Of a stretch of DNA of 64,000 bases, positions 21,428 to 29,888 are shown in pieces; the first letter of the stretch is position 1; each line of letters starts with the position of its first letter. The DNA lies in the NCBI RefSeq assembly GCF_032878875.1, contig NZ_CP118157.1, positions 2,914,001-2,978,000 of the forward strand. Reading direction: 5' to 3'. The position numbers and the translations under genes are program-made. The notes under the pieces were generated by a model that saw only the letters and a list, made by a program, of their open reading frames with translations, did not search any database and was not told where the DNA came from. Source of the stretch: Microbacterium sp. AB (GTDB taxonomy: Bacteria > Actinomycetota > Actinomycetes > Actinomycetales > Microbacteriaceae).

Positions 21428-21790
21428 CCGCTTCTCACTTCTCCTACCGAACGACGGGTGTTCGAGGAGTCACGAACCGCGGAGGGAACGTGGAGCCCGA
21501 GACTCCTCCACGCACCACCGAGATCTTGTGGCCCGGTGGGCCCGCAACGGCTTACGCTGCATCCCCGATTATGCGGGAACCGTATTACGTCGGCATTGCC
21601 GAGCCCGTTCTGTTTCGTACGGTTTCATTTCGCGACGGCGGATGTCGGGCACCGCTCGTTGTCGGAAATCGAAAGAATCGCGCGATTTAATCGCGGAACG
21701 CGAGGTGCGGCCGTGCGATGCGGGCGCATCCTGAAATCACCACCGACATCGGCGCCCCGTCCGGGGCCGCCCCACGACAAGGAGGAACCC
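21428..21790. promoter_or_regulatory. 363-base divergent intergenic region with unexplained structure
   Basis: It separates the FMN reductase (minus) from the 36-residue protein (plus) and must hold both promoters. Visible structure: exact 8-base arms GAGGAGTC (21464-21471) and GACTCCTC (21501-21508), and a perfect palindrome AATCGCGCGATT (21676-21687). The segment 21540-21690 is richer in A and T than the surroundings. No known riboswitch signature (FMN, SAM) was recognised, and no supported coding frame is present. An RBS AAGGAGG lies at its right end. Confidence 0.45.
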
Positions 21791-21901
21791 ATGAACGCTC
21801 CCGCCACCGCCCTCGAGTTCGACGCCGACGCGCTCGACTTCGCCGGAGTCCCGGCGTGGTTCGACCGCCATCCGTCGCAGGCCGAGGGCGAAGACGACTG
21901 A
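21791..21901 (+). CDS. 36-residue micro-protein with C-terminal HPSQAEGE motif
   Basis: The frame reads ATG to TGA with an excellent RBS (AAGGAGG, 6 bases upstream) and is followed 33 bases later by a 13-base-stem terminator, so it looks like a free-standing expressed gene. The peptide is acidic; its last 14 residues are WFDRHPSQAEGEDD. A second small gene at 29.7 kb carries HPSQAEGE twice, so the motif is the conserved part. There is no signal peptide or membrane segment. It could be a modified peptide precursor, a degradation or interaction tag, or a small regulator; none of these is proven. Confidence 0.65.
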   Translation: MNAPATALEFDADALDFAGVPAWFDRHPSQAEGEDD

Positions 21902-21933
21902 GCCGACCGCACCACTCCGCGACGCAGCGGCTC

Positions 21934-21963
21934 GATGCCCCCTCCGACGACGGAGGGGGCATC
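21934..21963. terminator. Strong hairpin terminator between micro-protein and galM
   Basis: A perfect 13-base stem (GATGCCCCCTCCG and its complement) closes a 4-base ACGA loop between two convergent genes. Only a short mixed tail follows, so termination may be moderate, but the position and stability suggest a bidirectional terminator. Confidence 0.75.
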
Positions 21964-21977
21964 CTCGTGTTCCGGCG

Positions 21978-22907
21978 TCAGACCGCCGCGATCGTCCAGG
22001 ATGCGACGTCCACGGTCTCACGGGGCTCGAGGACCACGAGGTCGGCGCCGGAGTTGAACGCGTCGGGCGGGCAGGTCATCGGCTCGACGGCGAGCCCCGC
22101 ACGATGACCCGGCTCGCCGGGCCGGTCGGCGGTGTGGATCTGCACCCACGGGCACCGGCCGTCCCACGACAGGCTCACCCCCGTGCCCGCGTCCGACACG
22201 AGCCGTGCGCTCGCGACTCCGGCCGTGTCCCTCGACAGGCCCGTGTACGCGTGGTCGATCTCGACCGGGCCGATCCGGCGCGACTCCCGGAAGTCGAAGC
22301 GCTCGGCGTCGTCGGACACCCGGCCGACGTGCGTCGGCGCGAGGCGGTCGTGGGTGACGTGCAGCACGGCGTCGGCCGGCAGCAGCAGCGTCCAGTCGTC
22401 GACGACGCCCGGGCCGGCGACGAGGTACGGGTGCGGGCCGGTGCCGAAGGGCGCCCGGGCGGCGCTCGCGTTCGACGCCGACACGGTCTGGGTCAGCCCG
22501 TTCTCGTCGAGCGCGAAGGCGGTCGTGACCGTCACGCGCCACGGATAGCCCTCCTGCGGCTGGATCGTCGCCGCGAGGACGACGTGCGCGGGGCCCTCGT
22601 CGAGGACCGCGAAGTCCGCCCAGGCGAGCAGGCCGTGCAGCGCGTGCCCGCGCGCCGGTTCGGTGAGCGCGAGCCGGTGCTCGACGCCGTCGAACGCGTA
22701 CCGCCCGTCGACCACGCGGTTCGGCCACGGGGCGAGCGTCGTGCCGCGATAGACCGGCCGCACCTCGTCGCTCGCGAAGGGCACGACGAGGTCGCGGCCC
22801 TCGAAGGTCAGCGAGCGCAGGGTCGCTCCCACGCTCGCGACGACCGCCTCGTAGCCGTCCGCGCGGAGGACGTGCTGGACGCCCGAGACGTCGATGGCCT
22901 GCGTCAT
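21978..22907 (-). CDS. galM: Aldose 1-epimerase
   Basis: A 309-residue galactose mutarotase-like protein interconverting alpha and beta anomers of aldoses. Family marks are TTLAPWPNRVVDGRYAFDG (about residues 55-73), the catalytic His in GHALHGLLAWADF, GPHPYLV, and a C-terminal glutamate region (LAVEPMTCPPDAF) that supplies the catalytic base. The ATG has GGGAGAA at a suitable distance. It is divergent from an SBP-family-5 ABC operon, which could import a sugar, but the link is positional only. Confidence 0.9.
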   Translation of the reverse strand: MTQAIDVSGVQHVLRADGYEAVVASVGATLRSLTFEGRDLVVPFASDEVRPVYRGTTLAPWPNRVVDGRYAFDGVEHRLALTEPARGHALHGLLAWADFAVLDEGPAHVVLAATIQPQEGYPWRVTVTTAFALDENGLTQTVSASNASAARAPFGTGPHPYLVAGPGVVDDWTLLLPADAVLHVTHDRLAPTHVGRVSDDAERFDFRESRRIGPVEIDHAYTGLSRDTAGVASARLVSDAGTGVSLSWDGRCPWVQIHTADRPGEPGHRAGLAVEPMTCPPDAFNSGADLVVLEPRETVDVASWTIAAV

Positions 22908-23201
22908 GTCGTGTTCTCCCTCTGCTCCATGCCCGCCATCCCGTGCGACGAGCCCGTCTGCCAGTATGTCCGGCTCCGGGCGCGCGCCGCATCCGCCGCA
23001 GACGGGAGGACGACCCGGCGACACGGGGCCGCCGCGCAACACGGAGCGTAACGCCGGTTCACAGATCGGCACGATGCGCAACGCGACGGGGACCGTGACG
23101 TGCTCGGCGATATCGTCGGAGCTCGCCGCGGACCGGATCGCACCCCTCCCGCGGCGGGTCCCGATCACAGCCCGCGCCCCTCTCCTCCCCCGGAGCGAAA
23201 G

Positions 23202-24830
23202 ATGAACAGACAGCGTCGCACGACGCCCCTGCGCCTCGCGGCTCTCGTCGCCGCATCCGCCCTCCTCCTCACCGGATGCTCGGGCGGGGCCGACCCGGCC
23301 GAGTCGTCCGCGTCCGGCGAGGAGATCGAGTACGGCGGGACGCTCCGCGTCGGCTTCGGCGGCGAGGACGTCGCCAACTACGACCCGCAGCAGCGTCCGC
23401 AGCTGTTCCCCCGCACCGTGTCGCGTCAGATCACCGACACCCTCACGGAGCAGGATCCGGAGACCGGCGAGATCCTGCCGTGGCTCGCGGAGTCGTGGGA
23501 GATCAACGACGACGTCACGGAGTTCACGTTCCATCTCAAGGAGGGGGTGACGTTCTCCGACGGCACGCCCTTCGACGCGGAGATCGTGAAGGCGAACTTC
23601 GACCGCGTCGTCGAGATCGGCTCGCTGGCGTTCATCGCCGGCAGCTACTTCCGCGGATACGTCGGCAGCGAGGTCGTCGACGAGCACACGGTCACGGCGA
23701 CCTTCGACTCCCCCAACGCCCAGTTCCTCCAGGCGACGTCCACGCAGTCTCTCGGGATCATCGGGCAGGCGTCGATCGATCTCGCCCCGGAGGAGGTCGC
23801 CGCGGGCGACGTGATCGGCACGGGGCCCTTCGTCGTCGAGTCGTACGAGCCGGAGAACAGGCTCGTGCTCGCGGCGCGCGAGGACTACGCCTGGCCGTCG
23901 CCGCTCTACGAGAACCCGGGCAGGCCGTACTACGACACCGTCGAGATCTCGTTCATCCCCGATCCGACGACCCTCTCGGGCTCCGTGACCTCCGGCCAGC
24001 TCGACTACGCGTACATCCTCGACGCATCGACGACGAGCACCGTCGAGAGCAGCGGCGCGACGCTCGTCAGCACGCCGATGCCCGCCATCTCCATCCCGCT
24101 CGTGCCCCTGCTGCACCGCGACGTGTTCGCCGAGGAGAACGTCCGCCGGGCGCTCGGCTACGCGACCGACCGCCAGGCCATCGTCGACACCGTGTTCCAG
24201 GGCGCGTACACGCCCGCGACGGGTGTGCTCACGACGACCAACCCCGGGTACGTCGACCTCTCGGACGAGCTCGTGTACGACGTCGACGTCGCGAACCAGA
24301 TCCTCGACGAGTCGTCGTTCTCGACCGTCGGAGACGACGGGATCCGCGTGAACGGGGACGGCGAGCCGCTCGCGATCACGATCCAGTACACGGGCGCCGG
24401 CACGACGGAGACACTGCTCCAGCTCGTGCAGCAGCAGTGGAACCAGGTCGGCATCGACTTCCGGCTCGAGCCGGTCGCCGACCTGTCGGAGTACAGCATT
24501 CACGACTACCCGTTCGACATCACGACGTGGTCGCAGACGCGCGCCGATCCCGACGTTCTCCGCATCGTCTACAGCTCGTTCTACGAGAACCAGTCGTTCC
24601 TCTTCACGAACCCCGACGAGGAGCTCGACGCGGCCCTGAACGTCCTGCAGACGACGGTCGACGCCGACGAGCGGCTCGAGGCGTCCCGCGCGGTGCAGGA
24701 GATCATCCTGGAGCGCGGGTACTCCGTGCCCCTCTACGACCTCATCCAGTACTCGGCCGCCGCGCCGGGCATCGAGGGCGCGCACACCGACATCGAGGGC
24801 AAGCCGCTTCTCGTCGACGTGCACCCGTAG
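23202..24830 (+). CDS. ABC transporter substrate-binding lipoprotein, family 5 (first importer)
   Basis: A 542-residue SBP_bac_5 (DppA/OppA-like) lipoprotein. The signal peptide ends in LTGC with Cys26. The mature protein starts with YGGTLRVGF and contains LAESWEINDDVTEFTFHLKE and FSDGTPFDAEIVKANFDR, the family entry motif, then NVRRALGYATDRQAIVD. These proteins bind oligopeptides, nickel, opines or oligosaccharides. The substrate cannot be deduced; galM lies opposite and no peptidase is nearby. It is first in an operon of SBP, two permeases and a double ATPase. The ATG is preceded by GGAGCGAAAG; the 294-base gap upstream holds no other gene. Confidence 0.92.
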   Translation: MNRQRRTTPLRLAALVAASALLLTGCSGGADPAESSASGEEIEYGGTLRVGFGGEDVANYDPQQRPQLFPRTVSRQITDTLTEQDPETGEILPWLAESWEINDDVTEFTFHLKEGVTFSDGTPFDAEIVKANFDRVVEIGSLAFIAGSYFRGYVGSEVVDEHTVTATFDSPNAQFLQATSTQSLGIIGQASIDLAPEEVAAGDVIGTGPFVVESYEPENRLVLAAREDYAWPSPLYENPGRPYYDTVEISFIPDPTTLSGSVTSGQLDYAYILDASTTSTVESSGATLVSTPMPAISIPLVPLLHRDVFAEENVRRALGYATDRQAIVDTVFQGAYTPATGVLTTTNPGYVDLSDELVYDVDVANQILDESSFSTVGDDGIRVNGDGEPLAITIQYTGAGTTETLLQLVQQQWNQVGIDFRLEPVADLSEYSIHDYPFDITTWSQTRADPDVLRIVYSSFYENQSFLFTNPDEELDAALNVLQTTVDADERLEASRAVQEIILERGYSVPLYDLIQYSAAAPGIEGAHTDIEGKPLLVDVHP

Positions 24831-24847
24831 GGCGGCGACCGCCGTTC

Positions 24848-25819
24848 ATGACCCGCTACGTCCTGCGACGGCTCGGGCACGCCCTCATCGTGCTCTGGGG
24901 CGCCGTCACCCTCTCCTTCCTCCTCGTCTACCTCATCCCCGGCGACCCCGCCGTCATCATGCTCGGCGGGGGCCAGGGAGGGGGCGAGGGCGGCGGCTCG
25001 GCGGACTCCGACGAGATCGCGGAGGTCCGCCGGGAGCTCGGGCTCGACCGGCCGATCGTCCTGCAGTACGTCGCATACCTGTTCCGGGTGGCGACCCTCG
25101 ACTGGGGCACGTCGTTCGCCCGCCAGCAGCCCGTCGTCGACGTGATCGCCGCGAGCATCGGCGCGACGGTCGAGCTCGGCCTCGCGAGCATCGTCCTCAC
25201 GGTCGTGCTCGGATTCGCGTTCGGCCTCGGCGCGGTCCTGCTGCCGGGGGCCTGGGTCCGCTCGCTCTTCCAGTCCCTGACCGTGCTCGGGATCGCCATG
25301 CCGTCCTTCTGGCTCGCGATCCTGCTGCTGCAGGTCTTCTCGTTCGGGCTCGGATGGTTCCCCGCCTTCGGCGCGAACGGGCCGCTGTCGCTCGTCCTCC
25401 CCTCGCTCACCCTCGCCCTCCTGGCGGCGGGGACCCTGGGACAGCTGCTCGCGCGCTCGATCGCCGAGGGCCTCGCCGAGCCGTACGCCGACGTCGCCTT
25501 CGCGAAGGGTCTCGGACGCACCGGCGTCGTGCTCCGCCACGTGCTGCGCAACGCGAGCCTCCCCGTGTTCACGATGGTCGGCCTGCTGTTCGGGACGATC
25601 ATCTCGGGCGCCACCATCGTCGAGACGATCTTCGCGCGGCCGGGTGTCGGAAACCTCTTCGTGTCTGCGGTGCAGGCGCGCGACTTCCCCCTCATCCAGG
25701 CGCTCGTCGTGCTCACGGGCGGCGTCTTCGTCCTCGTCACGCTCGTCGTCGACCTCGCGTACCGCTGGATCGACCCGCGCGTCGTCGAGCCCGACCGCAG
25801 GGAAGGCACACGCTCGTGA
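24848..25819 (+). CDS. ABC transporter permease (DppB-like), first importer
   Basis: A 323-residue permease with six membrane helices. It begins MTRYVLRRLGHALIVLWGAV, has the LDWGTSF entry loop and the EAA-like coupling loop EPYADVAFAKGLGRTGVVLRH, and ends with YRWIDPRV, all typical of DppB. A Gly/Ser-rich insertion (residues 38-53) sits in the first external loop. It lies 17 bases after the binding protein gene; its stop overlaps the GTG of the second permease. Confidence 0.92.
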   Translation: MTRYVLRRLGHALIVLWGAVTLSFLLVYLIPGDPAVIMLGGGQGGGEGGGSADSDEIAEVRRELGLDRPIVLQYVAYLFRVATLDWGTSFARQQPVVDVIAASIGATVELGLASIVLTVVLGFAFGLGAVLLPGAWVRSLFQSLTVLGIAMPSFWLAILLLQVFSFGLGWFPAFGANGPLSLVLPSLTLALLAAGTLGQLLARSIAEGLAEPYADVAFAKGLGRTGVVLRHVLRNASLPVFTMVGLLFGTIISGATIVETIFARPGVGNLFVSAVQARDFPLIQALVVLTGGVFVLVTLVVDLAYRWIDPRVVEPDRREGTRS

Positions 25820-26643
25820 GCCGGTTCTCGGCGGTCCTGAGCCGCTCGGTGCGGCAGCCCGGCGCCGTGCTCGCGATCACGGCGCTCCTGCTCTTCGTCG
25901 GCTGGGCGGCGTTCCCCCAGCTCTTCGCGACGCACGACCCGGTCGACGACCTCGACCCCGCGAGCTCGCTCACGGGGCCGAGCGCCGCGCACTGGTTCGG
26001 GACCGATCTCCTCGGGCGCGACGTGTACAGCCGCGTCGTCTACGGCGCACGCGTCTCCCTTCTCGCCGGGACGCTCGCCGTCGCGATCTCGCTCGTGGTC
26101 GGCACGGCGCTCGGCATGATCGCCGCCTCCGTCGGCAGGTGGGTGGACTCGGCGATCTCCCGCTTCGTCGACGTGCTCGTCGCCATCCCCGGCCTGCTGC
26201 TGTCGATGGCGTTCGTCTCCATCCTCGGCTTCGGCGTCGAGCGCGTGGCGATCGCCGTCGGCATCGCGGGCATCCCGGGCTTCGCGCGCCTCGCACGGGC
26301 CGAGACCATCCGCATCCTGAGCCTGCCGTACTTCGACGCCGCCCGCACGAGCGGCACCTCCGGGCCGCTCACGCTCGTCACGCACATCGTGCCCAATGCG
26401 ACGGGCCCGGTGATCGTGCTCGCGGGCCTGGAGCTCGGCGGCGCGATCCTCTCGGTCGCCGCACTGAGCTTCCTCGGGTTCGGCGCGGTGCCGCCGCACC
26501 CCGAATGGGGCTCGATGGTGAACGAGGGACGCATCCAGATCGCGGAGGCCTGGTGGCTCACGACGTTCCCGGGGCTCGTCATCGTGCTGACCGTGCTGTC
26601 CCTGAACCGGCTGAGCAGGAATGCGAGGACACGCGCGCGATGA
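25816..26643 (+). CDS. ABC transporter permease (DppC-like), first importer
   Basis: A 275-residue DppC-type permease with five to six helices. Marker stretches are HWFGTDLLGRDVYSRVVYGA and the coupling loop PYFDAARTSGTSGPLTLVTH, followed by SFLGFGAVPPHPEWGSMV. The GTG start overlaps the previous TGA (GTGA) and its TGA overlaps the ATG of the ATPase gene, so the three products are translationally coupled. It pairs with the DppB-like protein to form the channel. Confidence 0.92.
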   Translation: MSRFSAVLSRSVRQPGAVLAITALLLFVGWAAFPQLFATHDPVDDLDPASSLTGPSAAHWFGTDLLGRDVYSRVVYGARVSLLAGTLAVAISLVVGTALGMIAASVGRWVDSAISRFVDVLVAIPGLLLSMAFVSILGFGVERVAIAVGIAGIPGFARLARAETIRILSLPYFDAARTSGTSGPLTLVTHIVPNATGPVIVLAGLELGGAILSVAALSFLGFGAVPPHPEWGSMVNEGRIQIAEAWWLTTFPGLVIVLTVLSLNRLSRNARTRAR

Positions 26644-28229
26644 CCGACGAACCACTGCTCGACATCGAGGGACTGCGCATCGAGTACCGGTCGCGCCGGG
26701 GAGACCACGTCGCCGTCGACGGCGTGGACCTCTCGGTCGCCCGCGGCGAGACCGTCGCCGTCGTCGGCGAGTCGGGATCGGGCAAGACCAGCATCGGCCG
26801 GGCCGTCCTGGGCCTGCACCGGAGACGCACGCGCGTCGCCGGCCGCATCGGCTTCCAGGGCCGCGACCTGCTGCATCTCACGGCGAAGCAGTGGCGCAGC
26901 GTGCGCGGCCGAGAGGTCGCGCTCATCCCGCAGGATCCGATGGCTTCCCTCAACCCGCTGCGCCGCGTGCGCGCGCAGGTCGCCGAGGCGCTCACGACGC
27001 ACGGCGTCGCGTCCTCCAAGGCGCGAGAGCGCGCCGACCAGGCGCTGCGGGACGCCGGGCTCACGCGCGTCGACCAGATCGGCGCGCGCTATCCGCATCA
27101 GCTCTCCGGCGGTCAGCGCCAGCGCGTCCTCATCGCGATGGCGATCGTCGGCCGCCCCGCCCTCATCGTCGCGGACGAGCCGACGAGCGCCCTCGACGTG
27201 ACGGTGCAGAAGTACATCCTCGACGGCATCCAGGACCTCATCGCGTCCTCGCGCACGTCGCTGCTGCTCATCACGCACGACCTCGCGGTCGCGGCGGAGC
27301 GGGCGGACCGGATCGCCGCGCTCGACCGGGGGGCCATCGTCGAGGACGCCCCGGCGCGCGTCGTCGCCGCCCGGCCGCAGCACGCCTACACGCGTTCGCT
27401 CATCGCCTCGCTGCCGCAGCGGAGTCCGCATCCGCTCGTCTCGCCCGCCGCCGCCGACGCGCCGGCCGTGCTCTCCGCAGAAGGACTCCGTCGCTCCTTC
27501 GGCGAGGCCGTCGCGCTCGACGACGTCGATCTCGTGCTGCGCCGCGGGCAGACGCTGGGAGTCGTCGGCGAGTCGGGATCGGGCAAGACGACGCTCGCCC
27601 GCGTGCTCCTGGGGCTCGACGAGGCCGACGCGGGGACCATCCGCCTCGACGACGGCGAGGAACGAGGGCGCACACGGTCGAGGTCCTTCCGCTCGCGCGT
27701 GCAGCCCGTCTTCCAGGACCCGTACTCCTCCCTGGACCCGTCCCACTCGATCGCCTGGTCCGTCCTCGAGCCCGTCCGCGCCCTCACCTCCCTCGGCCCT
27801 CGTGCGCAGCGTCGGCGCCTCGAGGAGACCCTCGACCAGGTGCGACTGCCGTCGTCCATCGCCTCCCGCCGGCCCGACGAGCTCTCCGGCGGGCAGCTCC
27901 AGCGGGCGGCGATCGCCCGCGCGCTGAGCGTGCGCCCCGACGTCCTCGTCTGCGACGAGGCCGTGAGCTCGCTGGACGTGACGATCCAGGCGCAGATCCT
28001 CGAGTTCCTCGCGCAGCTGCAGCGCGAGACGTCGCTGTCGTACCTCTTCATCACGCACGACCTCGCCGTGCTGCGACTCGTGTGCGAGTCGGTGCTCGTG
28101 ATGCGCGACGGACGCGTCGTCGAACGGGGCACGACGGAATCGGTGTTCGCGGACCCGCGGAGCGCCTACACGCAGGAGCTCATCGCCGCGATCCCCGCCT
28201 GGGGCACGGCGTTCGCCCCGGAGGCGTGA
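26640..28229 (+). CDS. ABC transporter double ATPase (DppD-DppF fusion), first importer
   Basis: A 529-residue protein holding two complete nucleotide-binding domains in tandem. Domain 1 has Walker A GESGSGKTS, signature LSGGQRQR and Walker B LIVADEP; domain 2 (from about residue 280) has GESGSGKTT, LSGGQLQR and LVCDEAVSSLD, where Ala replaces the usual Pro after DE. The first domain ends with an oligopeptide-type tail (AARPQHAYTRSLI). It energises the importer encoded upstream. It is the last gene of the operon and precedes a GACTCC tandem repeat. Confidence 0.92.
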   Translation: MTDEPLLDIEGLRIEYRSRRGDHVAVDGVDLSVARGETVAVVGESGSGKTSIGRAVLGLHRRRTRVAGRIGFQGRDLLHLTAKQWRSVRGREVALIPQDPMASLNPLRRVRAQVAEALTTHGVASSKARERADQALRDAGLTRVDQIGARYPHQLSGGQRQRVLIAMAIVGRPALIVADEPTSALDVTVQKYILDGIQDLIASSRTSLLLITHDLAVAAERADRIAALDRGAIVEDAPARVVAARPQHAYTRSLIASLPQRSPHPLVSPAAADAPAVLSAEGLRRSFGEAVALDDVDLVLRRGQTLGVVGESGSGKTTLARVLLGLDEADAGTIRLDDGEERGRTRSRSFRSRVQPVFQDPYSSLDPSHSIAWSVLEPVRALTSLGPRAQRRRLEETLDQVRLPSSIASRRPDELSGGQLQRAAIARALSVRPDVLVCDEAVSSLDVTIQAQILEFLAQLQRETSLSYLFITHDLAVLRLVCESVLVMRDGRVVERGTTESVFADPRSAYTQELIAAIPAWGTAFAPEA

Positions 28230-28250
28230 CGCCGGCCACGCCCCGGCTCT

Positions 28251-28291
28251 GACTCCGACTCCGACTCCGACTCCGACTCCGACTCCGACTC
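28251..28291. repeat. GACTCC hexamer tandem repeat
   Basis: Six exact copies of GACTCC plus a five-base partial copy, in the 150-base gap between the convergent ABC operon and the MFS gene. It is not part of a supported coding frame. Pure hexamer tracts like this are prone to slippage and to copy-number differences between strains. Confidence 0.9.
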
Positions 28292-28300
28292 GAGGACGAT

Positions 28301-28348
28301 CGGTGCGGAAGTGCGGCTCTCGCGCGCCATGACGAGACTTTCGCACCG
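28301..28348. repeat. Imperfect inverted repeat after the hexamer tract
   Basis: CGGTGCGGAAGT (28301-28312) and ACTTTCGCACCG (28337-28348) are reverse complements at 11 of 12 positions with 24 bases between. The hairpin lies between two convergent stop codons and may act as a shared terminator or belong to a dispersed palindrome family; no T-run is present. Confidence 0.45.
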
Positions 28349-28379
28349 ACGAAGGCTCAGGCCATGGCGCAGCGGGCGC

Positions 28380-29582
28380 TCAGCGGACGGCGCGGAGCTC
28401 CCGCTCGGCCTTCGTCCTGGCCGCGGGCGCGAGGAAGACCGCCGCGCCGACGAGGACGAGCACGACGATCATCGCCTGGCGCAGTCCGAACCTCTCGCCC
28501 AGCAGGCCGAGCACGGGAGGGCCGACGAGGAACGCGACGTAGCCGATCGTCGCGGCGAACGACACGCGGGCCGCGGTGTCCTCGCCCGAGTCGCCCGCCG
28601 CCGAGAGCGCCACGGGGAAGCCGAGCGACGCGCCGAGTCCCCACAGCACGACCGCCGCGGCCGCCGCCCCCTGATGGTCGACGAAGATCACGACCGCAAG
28701 GCCCACCGCGCCCAGGAACGCGCTCGCCCCGAGCACCGCCGCACGCCCGAAGCGGTCGACGAACCATCCGCCCGCGAAGCGGCCCGCGGTCATCGACGCC
28801 GCGAAGATCACGTACACGGCCGAGCCGAGGGCGGCGTCGAGCCCGTGGCCCTCCACCATCACGAGCGGAAGCCAGTCGTTGGCCGTCCCCTCCGCCATGG
28901 CGAGGGCGAGGATGATGCCGCCCACGAGCAGCAGACCGGGGTCCCTCCAGACGGCGGGACGCGGCGCCGTCGCCGCCCGGGTGGATGAGTCGTCCCGCAC
29001 GACGGGGCGCCGGCCGATGCCCGCCGGGATGCCGCGGATGGCGACGACGAGCCCCGCGACGACGATCACGGAGACGATCACGAGGTGCAGGACGACGGGG
29101 AAGGCGACCGCGGTGAGCAGCATGCCGGCGATCGCGCCGGCCACCGTGCCGAGGCTGAAGAAGCCGTGCATGAGCGGCATCACCGACCGCCCCATCGCCT
29201 GCTCCACCTCGGCGCCCTCGACGTTCAGCGCGACCTCGCCGCCGCCCATCCCGAGCCCGAACAGCCCGAGGCCCATCGCGACGACCGGGCTCGCGCCGAA
29301 AGCGGTCCCGAGCCCGATGACGGCCACGCCGAGGGCGAGGGTGAGCGTCCCCGCGGCGATCACGGGGCGCGTCCCGAGGCGCGAGACGAGCGGCGCCGAC
29401 GAGAGGATGCCGATCATCGACCCCAGGGAGAGCCCGAGGAGGACGAACCCCATCTCGTCGATCCGGGCGTCCAGCAGCACCCGCACGTCGGGCGTGCGCG
29501 TCACCCACGACGAGATGCCGATGCCGGGCAGGAAGAACATCGCGAAGAGCGCGTTGCGGCGCAGGCGGATGGCGGTGGTCAC
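28380..29582 (-). CDS. MFS transporter
   Basis: A 400-residue major facilitator with 12 predicted helices in two six-helix halves, the second starting near residue 215 (RDPGLLLVGGIILALAMAEG). The loop 2-3 motif is SAPLVSRLGTRPVIAAG and the second half has AGRFAGGWFVDRFGRAAVLG, the standard Gly-Arg gating pattern. The general look, with MGLGLFGLGMGGGEVALN in helix 4, recalls YbjJ-type permeases of unknown substrate. No biosynthetic or resistance genes are adjacent. It is divergent from the 52-residue micro-protein. Confidence 0.87.
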   Translation of the reverse strand: MTTAIRLRRNALFAMFFLPGIGISSWVTRTPDVRVLLDARIDEMGFVLLGLSLGSMIGILSSAPLVSRLGTRPVIAAGTLTLALGVAVIGLGTAFGASPVVAMGLGLFGLGMGGGEVALNVEGAEVEQAMGRSVMPLMHGFFSLGTVAGAIAGMLLTAVAFPVVLHLVIVSVIVVAGLVVAIRGIPAGIGRRPVVRDDSSTRAATAPRPAVWRDPGLLLVGGIILALAMAEGTANDWLPLVMVEGHGLDAALGSAVYVIFAASMTAGRFAGGWFVDRFGRAAVLGASAFLGAVGLAVVIFVDHQGAAAAAVVLWGLGASLGFPVALSAAGDSGEDTAARVSFAATIGYVAFLVGPPVLGLLGERFGLRQAMIVVLVLVGAAVFLAPAARTKAERELRAVR

Positions 29583-29729
29583 GGGGGCGCTCTCGACGAG
29601 GACGGCAGAGTCGTCTCACGCTACACCGGGGAGGCGCCCCGTCGGCTCCGGAGCATCCGCCCTGTCAAGCCCCTCCCGCGGTGAGCGCGGGCCCGAGACG
29701 CTGGACCCATCCGATGAGAGAGGTGGGAC

Positions 29730-29888
29730 ATGAGCACATCGACGTTCCCCGACGAACCGCAGCGACCGTCCGATCCGGAGCAGGCCCATCCGTCGCAGGC
29801 CGAGGGGGAAGACCCCGATGCGCCCCTGGGCGAGCCCGACCCGGAGCCCGGCGGGCATCCCTCGCAGGCGGAGGGCGAAGAGGGCTGA
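29730..29888 (+). CDS. 52-residue micro-protein with two HPSQAEGE motifs
   Basis: ATG to TGA with a purine-rich upstream (GAGAGAGGTGGG). The peptide is acidic and proline-rich and carries HPSQAEGE twice, at residues 20-27 and 43-50, separated by a DPDAPLGEPDPEPGG linker; it ends HPSQAEGEEG. The motif also ends the 36-residue protein at 21.8 kb, so at least three copies occur in this window in otherwise different peptides. The composition predicts disorder, with no membrane segment. The gene sits between a divergent MFS gene and a convergent aminotransferase gene and appears monocistronic. Function unknown. Confidence 0.62.
   Translation: MSTSTFPDEPQRPSDPEQAHPSQAEGEDPDAPLGEPDPEPGGHPSQAEGEEG

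What the first reader, a model, noticed from the sequence alone, without database searches (positions are those of the whole stretch)
21791..29888. Two tiny genes share an HPSQAEGE peptide motif
A 36-residue and a 52-residue protein, 7.8 kb apart and otherwise unrelated, carry HPSQAEGE once (near the C-terminus) and twice (mid and C-terminal). Both have good ribosome binding sites, and the first has its own 13-base-stem terminator. A repeated eight-residue motif in micro-proteins, with one or two copies per protein, could be a modification or cleavage core, a degradation tag or a docking motif. I know of no description of such a family, but could not search.
Basis: partly seen in the sequence, partly recalled or inferred. 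Interest (0 to 1): 0.72.

Follow-up and report, generated by a model that had tools for sequence, protein, structure and literature searches.

The report
Undescribed PSQAEG-motif bacterial micro-protein family
Two tiny bacterial genes share a short peptide because both belong to a widespread family of very small, probably floppy proteins that carry the near-invariant sequence PSQAEG once or, mostly, twice; I found no description of the family, and its job is unknown.

Summary
ORF A (36 aa, one HPSQAEGE) and ORF B (52 aa, two) hold the only three matches of the back-translated motif in this 3.6 Mb Microbacterium genome. Both are conserved genes. A belongs to a subfamily of 30-36 aa found in 47 of 366 genomes of the genus. 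B belongs to a larger family with mostly two copies: 157 proteins at E up to 10, 996 and 2894 by profile, and 125 of 219 genomes of a genus I take to be Streptomyces. Pfam, NCBIfam, PHROGs and PDB searches and two text searches of 5.39 million open papers found nothing. The conserved unit is PSQAEG (614 of 629 P[ST]xAEG copies); flanks, linkers and synonymous codons vary. A and B lie within 0.4 kb in 9 of 46 A loci, including three relatives whose gene order I compared with this genome's. No constant partner gene was found.

The parts
21779..21785 (+). ribosome binding site AAGGAGG of gene A
   Evidence: read; start-site scan scores 6 of 6 to GGAGGA
21791..21901 (+). gene A: 36-aa micro-protein MNAPATALEFDADALDFAGVPAWFDRHPSQAEGEDD, type A (one motif near the C-terminus after a conserved D.DA...P.W[FY][DE][RK] segment)
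   Evidence: pattern found in 47 of 366 genomes of the genus
21869..21892 (+). HPSQAEGE copy in gene A
21934..21963 (+). hairpin terminator of gene A, 13-bp stem, loop of 4, no T-run
   Evidence: fold; same place, with compensated stem changes, in L068, L084, L085
29663..29674 (+). TGTCAAGCCCCT box upstream of gene B, perhaps part of its promoter
   Evidence: one of 3 matches of TGTCAANSCCYT in the genome, reversed control 1; GTCAAN[CG]C lies upstream of 13 of 26 B genes against a mean of 0.26 in sequence shuffled in blocks of two bases
29718..29726 (+). ribosome binding site GAGAGGTGG of gene B
   Evidence: read; scan scores 4 of 6
29730..29888 (+). gene B: 52-aa acidic micro-protein, type B (two motifs 23 residues apart)
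29787..29810 (+). first HPSQAEGE copy in gene B
29856..29879 (+). second HPSQAEGE copy in gene B

Best explanation
A and B are members of one undescribed family of very small, acidic, probably disordered proteins whose functional unit is the hexapeptide PSQAEG. SHOWN: the genes are conserved; the hexapeptide is near-invariant while the sequence around it drifts; most relatives read carry two copies joined by a variable linker; A and B are neighbours in several relatives; no other gene was found to be a constant neighbour. INFERRED: PSQAEG is a short linear docking motif read by a pocket on some partner. A, with one copy behind a conserved Trp-bearing segment, would bind with one hand. B, with two copies on a flexible tether, would bind a dimer or bridge two partners. 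The partner must be common in the cell or encoded elsewhere, because nothing travels constantly with the genes. The patchy distribution suggests a conditional rather than a housekeeping role.
For: Hexapeptide invariance: 614 of 629 P[ST]xAEG copies in 345 proteins held (the listed top of three searches plus one translation of mine) are PSQAEG. When a protein has one PSQAEG, the best other 6-mer is exact in 275 of 344, 5 of 6 in 20, and 4 or fewer in 49: two copies or one, with little in between; no search required the second copy, though two-copy queries favour two-copy hits. Linkers vary from 18 to 49 residues across groups, but 95 of 117 in the Microbacterium-like set are 23. Synonymous change inside the motif. 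Spread: 96 of 366 genomes of the genus (control 1), 21 of 85 genera sampled in the family (control 1 genome), 125 of 219 genomes of the presumed Streptomyces genus (control 5), a two-copy Chloroflexota gene and a Cytophagaceae MAG protein with two copies in its tail. A-B adjacency, same strand, in 9 of 46 A loci. AlphaFold2 pLDDT 69 (A) and 62 (a relative), pTM 0.21.
Against: No partner has been identified and no binding tested. Low-confidence models of short peptides do not prove disorder. The relatives were collected through the motif, so its invariance is partly built in; the free second copy, the partly free S position and synonymous sites escape this. Distribution is patchy: 270 of 366 genomes of the genus had no match, Chloroflexota 2 of 201 matched against 4 with the reversed control, one match genuine by its two copies, Alphaproteobacteria 0 of 115. 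A universal partner does not explain why so many relatives do without.
Confidence: 0.45

Rival explanations
1. They are stress-protectant hydrophilic proteins (hydrophilin or LEA-like): disordered, charged, Gly-rich chains that protect other molecules, the repeat being a structural unit rather than a docking site.
For: Small, acidic (B pI 4.05), few order-promoting residues (B 3.8%), B Gly 11.5%; 335 of 344 proteins have no Cys and 320 no Trp. Repeated short units in small stress proteins are a known pattern (recalled).
Against: The recalled hydrophilin cut-offs (Gly over 6%, mean hydrophilicity over 1) are met together by only 64 of 344; B reaches 0.73 and A 0.24. Protectants conserve composition, whereas here six exact residues are kept while the rest drifts. 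The 91 neighbours scanned show no stress theme.
Confidence: 0.25
2. PSQAEG is an enzyme substrate: a modification core, a cleavage site or a degradation signal, acted on by a housekeeping enzyme.
For: Near-invariant six residues including a Ser and a Gln; one or two copies; in type A the motif is close to the C-terminus.
Against: No modifying enzyme, peptidase or exporter was found constant next to A, B or the presumed Streptomyces genes, unlike typical RiPP or quorum-peptide loci. I see no signal peptide or hydrophobic core (reading only). In two-copy members at least one copy is in mid-chain, which is unusual for a C-terminal degron.
Confidence: 0.15
3. They assist thiamine-diphosphate (TPP) enzymes.
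For: A starts 29-40 bp after a TPP-enzyme gene on the same strand in L079, L088, L093, L102, L108 and the named locus L150; in L064 the TPP gene follows A and B. L108's is of NCBIfam PRK08199 type; the others are 77-87% identical to it over the aligned part. B is in frame with a PRK08273-type TPP enzyme in L114 and directly upstream of one in L294.
Against: The first set is one related group of TPP genes, and the two TPP types are only about 27% identical. Of 45 fetched A loci 6 have the gene in the stretch read, and neither A nor B of the window is beside one.
Confidence: 0.07
4. The transcripts, not the peptides, matter: leader peptide or structured dual-function RNA.
For: In the main group A has a conserved upstream region with a palindrome (AAGGA-N7-TTCTTTC) that is almost unique to A in the genomes searched.
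Against: Consensus folding of 24 upstream-plus-ORF sequences gives no support: 1 of 23 predicted pairs has a two-sided change. Synonymous sites vary. In the window A ends in its own terminator, and what lies downstream differs between groups.
Confidence: 0.05

Closest known systems
Hydrophilins / LEA-like bacterial stress proteins (for example the KGG-repeat family PF10685; recalled)
   Same: Small, hydrophilic, repeated short motif, accessory distribution
   Different: No KGG match in Pfam scans of A, B and 8 relatives; most members miss the hydrophilicity cut-off; an exact hexapeptide is kept instead of a composition
Bivalent short-linear-motif proteins (docking motifs on disordered chains; general concept, recalled)
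   Same: Invariant short motif, variable linker, one or two copies, occasionally a tail on a longer protein
   Different: Partner unknown; no match in the libraries searched
Prokaryotic ubiquitin-like protein Pup (recalled)
   Same: Small, acidic, disordered actinobacterial protein
   Different: No C-terminal GGQ/GGE; internal motif often duplicated; no Pfam or NCBIfam match
RiPP precursor peptides
   Same: Small gene, repeated core-like peptide
   Different: No biosynthetic or export genes found to be kept with it

Membership tests
Hydrophilins (definition recalled: Gly > 6%, mean hydrophilicity > 1) | Gly above 6% | tested here: inconclusive
   B 11.5% and 317 of 344 proteins pass; A at 5.6% just misses
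Hydrophilins (definition recalled: Gly > 6%, mean hydrophilicity > 1) | mean hydrophilicity above 1 | tested here: not met
   A 0.24, B 0.73; 67 of 344 proteins pass
Hydrophilins (definition recalled: Gly > 6%, mean hydrophilicity > 1) | induced by or protective against water loss | not testable with these tools
   needs expression and survival data
KGG-repeat stress proteins (PF10685 recalled) | match to the Pfam KGG model | tested here: not met
   0 Pfam families for A and B at E up to 1; 8 diverse relatives gave only two sub-threshold hits, neither KGG
RiPP precursors | conserved modification or export genes beside the precursor | tested here: not met
   91 selected neighbours of B-type genes hit 121 Pfam families, the commonest in 4; A neighbours differ between groups
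Toxin-antitoxin pairs | constant partner gene or hydrophobic toxin peptide | tested here: not met
   no constant partner found; both peptides acidic, without a membrane segment by reading
Pup (feature recalled) | C-terminal GGQ or GGE | tested here: not met
   A ends EGEDD, B ends EGEEG
Leader peptides of attenuators | followed by the regulated operon | tested here: not met
   in the window A is followed by its own terminator and an oppositely oriented gene
PSQAEG family (defined here) | at least one PSQAEG in a small ORF with a ribosome binding site and conserved relatives | tested here: met
   A and B:
PSQAEG family (defined here) | binds a common partner through PSQAEG | not testable with these tools
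   needs pull-down or genetics

The most novel reading that the evidence does not exclude
PSQAEG is a previously unseen recognition code of bacteria: a six-residue docking motif, displayed once or twice on dedicated disordered micro-proteins and now and then as a tail on longer proteins, read by one conserved partner in Actinobacteria, Chloroflexota and Bacteroidota. B would be a two-handed linker and A a one-handed competitor or cap, each expressed from its own promoter.
Probability: 0.3. Interest if true: 0.85.

Novelty: categorically new. Interest (0 to 1): 0.64.

Why it matters
A hexapeptide kept exactly, in one or two copies, on otherwise freely drifting micro-proteins in several phyla is a strong sign of specific recognition, and none of the libraries searched describes it. 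The family is common in a genus that I take to be Streptomyces (125 of 219 genomes), which is tractable, so the partner can be fished out with a synthetic peptide. 'Categorically new' refers to the family and motif; the mechanism is open and might prove to be a variant of a known one.

Tried and rejected
Chance repeat: rejected; 3 copies against 4.6e-4 expected for the 8-mer, and hundreds of relatives.

DNA-level repeat or mobile element: rejected; codons vary synonymously. tblastn with B finds nothing in plasmids or phages; with P0243 and P0250 in plasmids, none and one weak hit. One of 2.9 million viral contigs matched a DR-type DNA pattern; not followed up.

Conserved operon partner: looked for in 60 fetched regions of the genus plus the window, in 35 B-type regions (34 read, L280 gave no motif ORF) and in 33 loci of the presumed Streptomyces genus (31 read). 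Of the 135 neighbours listed I gave 90 to the Pfam scan, dropping long frames, near-duplicate loci and frames that looked spurious, and added one reference (L114). My gene caller is crude and some called frames are wrong. What came out is A-B linkage, a TPP enzyme in one group and two single cases; the largest neighbour cluster in the presumed Streptomyces set spans 5 of 31 loci. Gene names glyS, mannosidase, epimerase, MFS, thiolase and ABC transporter are my reading of the sequences.

Structured RNA upstream of A: no covariation.

Regulon by operator: AAGGA-N(5-9)-TTCTTTC in 16 genomes (15 A genomes of my choice and the window's own) gave 12 sites in 11 genomes, reversed control 1; 10 sites lie upstream of A. 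No regulon.

Shared promoter element of A and B: a CTGGA-like element is enriched before A (33 of 46, shuffled mean 14.7) but not before B (4 of 26, mean 7.5).

A/B co-occurrence: B in 24 of 47 A genomes against 51 of 319 others, tallied by hand, Fisher p 4e-7. Not corrected for kinship, the 51 not read as genes, pattern misses variants. Weak.

Structure comparison: not run; the models are low-confidence.

Literature: motif strings in 5.39 million open PMC papers, 0 hits. One search gave no paper; (hydrophilins, small proteins) were seen as search listings with starts of abstracts only; no paper was opened.
Full report
1. What is there. Gene A (21791-21901, +) encodes MNAPATALEFDADALDFAGVPAWFDRHPSQAEGEDD and gene B (29730-29888, +) a 52-residue protein with two HPSQAEGE copies, 23 residues apart. 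Each has a ribosome binding site. The degenerate back-translation of HPSQAEG[ED] has three matches in the 3.64 Mb genome, all in these two genes, and none when the pattern is reversed. Given window composition, 4.6e-4 exact 8-mers would be expected genome-wide in six frames. The hairpin after A (21934-21963, 13 bp, loop 4) is real: in L068, L084 and L085 the same place holds an equally strong hairpin whose lower stem differs on both sides. It lacks a T-run.

2. Names. I call the window's genus Microbacterium because contigs of the same length bear that name (for example G038:C6 and NZ_BSEJ01000006.1). I call genus g90 Streptomyces because its ORFs are up to 86% identical to proteins with that name. 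Chloroflexota and Alphaproteobacteria follow from the titles of the centre loci (Oscillochloris, Allorhizobium) and recalled taxonomy.

3. Gene A is a subfamily. A pattern for W[FY]-[DE]-x-HPSQAEG occurs in 47 of 366 genomes of the genus. I fetched 45 of the other 46 (the last lies at a contig edge): 44 are 30-36 residues, one is 53 by start call. The chain ends almost at once after the motif. In a 33-row alignment the invariant positions are M1, D11, D13, P21, W23 and HPSQAEG. Pfam and NCBIfam give 0 families at E up to 1, PHROGs one chance-level hit (E 0.28), PDB none.

4. Gene B is a larger family. A single-sequence search gave 157 proteins with E up to 10 among 256 candidates, the window's own included. 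All 120 listed contain PSQAEG and 117 have two P[ST]xAEG; where named they are 'hypothetical' or 'uncharacterized' proteins, mostly of Microbacterium. A profile of one-copy, mostly K-type proteins gave 996 among 3244 candidates, and one of the PSQAEG[DE]R type 2894 with only 8000 candidates scored. Of 345 proteins held (the listed top of these searches, one of them my own translation, P0121), 290 have two copies, 54 one and 1 none; 614 of 629 P[ST]xAEG copies are PSQAEG; the residue before is K 287, H 199, T 70, R 39. The residues after differ by group: EDP in Microbacterium, DR[ED] and the like in others. PDB gives nothing for B or the DR-type profile.

5. Spread. Any type: 96 of 366 genomes of the genus, reversed control in 1, and 43 of 299 genomes of the family, 21 of 85 genera, control in 1. 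A named genome scan gave 86 stretches, 80 listed, all 80 read: Labedella, Amnibacterium, Pseudactinotalea, Actinotalea, Ruicaihuangia and Schumannella carry in-frame genes besides Microbacterium; nine loci (in Corynebacterium, Mycobacterium, Streptomyces albospinus and others) show no in-frame motif, and one alphaproteobacterial hit lies inside a long frame. In a phylum sample of 296 genomes a looser pattern matched 16 and its control 11; by reading, the window, four of genus g90 and probably one other are real, the rest out of frame or unclear. In g90 125 of 219 genomes match, control 5, and of 31 ORFs read 30 have two exact copies. Chloroflexota: 2 of 201 matched against 4 with the control, so the pattern alone is at noise level there; one of the two is a genuine two-copy gene. 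Alphaproteobacteria: 0 of 115. A Cytophagaceae MAG has a 242-residue ORF with two PSQAEGED in its tail and only chance-level Pfam hits.

6. Protein-level constraint. For 45 distinct A genes pS is 0.36 and pN 0.016 in the motif, against 0.43 and 0.27 in the 16 codons before it; for 33 B genes pS is 0.51 in both copies, pN 0.14 and 0.05. Because genes were found through the motif, the low pN is partly built in; pS is not, and shows that DNA identity is not what is kept. The cleaner test is the second copy: given one PSQAEG, the best other 6-mer is exact in 275, 5 of 6 in 20, and 4 or fewer in 49 of 344; two-copy queries favour two-copy hits, but not this gap between exact and absent. Spacing is 23 in 95 of 117 Microbacterium-like pairs but 18 to 49 elsewhere. 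An exact motif on a variable tether is what one expects of a short linear motif, not of a folded repeat. AlphaFold2 gives pLDDT 69 for A and 62 for a DR-type relative, pTM 0.21, with short helices only.

7. A and B belong together. In 9 of 46 A loci (45 fetched and the window) a B-type gene lies within 0.4 kb on the same strand: L064, L068, L081, L084, L085, L088, L093, L102, L107 (gaps 97-371 bp; L081's has one copy; in L107 B comes first). In L086 and L104 the gap is 13.9 and 2.2 kb. In L068, L084 and L085 the order is thiolase - A - B - epimerase - MFS. In the window it is thiolase - two flavin reductases (Pfam) - A - epimerase - peptide ABC operon - MFS - B, with the shared pieces 71-84% identical. 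So the 7.8 kb gap reflects rearrangement, in this lineage or in the others.

8. Neighbours and control. A's other neighbours differ between groups. Ninety-one selected neighbours of B-type genes hit 121 Pfam families, the commonest in 4. In g90 the largest shared neighbour occurs in 5 of 31 loci. A recurring one is a TPP enzyme: next to A, or after A and B, in six fetched genomes and the named locus L150, and in frame with or directly next to B in L114 and L294, but of two types about 27% identical. Upstream of A, TTCTTTC occurs in 23 of 46 against a shuffled mean of 0.4, often within AAGGA-N7-TTCTTTC; in 16 genomes of my choice that palindrome occurs 12 times, 10 of them before A, control 1. 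Upstream of B, GTCAAN[CG]C occurs in 13 of 26 against 0.26 shuffled, and in 0 of 46 A genes (shuffling in blocks of two bases). So A and B appear to have different promoters.

9. Interpretation. Family membership of A and B is about as sure as computation can make it. The mechanism is inferred: exact short motif, free linker, one or two copies, no constantly travelling partner, occasional tail on longer proteins. I put docking at 0.45, protectant 0.25, enzyme substrate 0.15, TPP helper 0.07, RNA or leader 0.05.

10. Limits.

Noticed in passing
window 23203-28230: A peptide/oligopeptide ABC transporter operon (by reading) lies between epimerase and MFS genes; blastn of L068, L084 and L085 shows no match to it.
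   Followed up: partly
window about 28250-28292: Tandem run of the hexamer GACTCC just after the ABC operon.
   Followed up: no
L248: A small protein from another actinobacterial family carries HPSQAEGER and ends in SFPASDPPSF, a tail motif I recall from many small bacterial proteins; the string is absent from the open papers searched.
   Followed up: partly
L309, L318, L324, L325, L330, L333, L261: Seven two-copy proteins of the presumed Streptomyces genus have ASDYDRWLYSHTPSQAEG or close variants: acidic and Trp/Tyr-bearing before the first motif, reminiscent of the WFD segment of type A.
   Followed up: partly
L296 (own genome, contig 1475580-1475598): The only AAGGA-N(5-9)-TTCTTTC site of this genome lies upstream of what reads as a class II fructose-bisphosphate aldolase gene, not upstream of gene A.
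   Followed up: partly
L114 6004-8046: The reading frame of a PRK08273-type TPP enzyme runs without a stop into a two-copy PSQAEG tail; a start codon and ribosome binding site for a separate B also exist.
   Followed up: partly
L106 upstream of A: A perfect 8-bp inverted repeat CTTAAGAA-N6-TTCTTAAG upstream of an A gene outside the main group.
   Followed up: no
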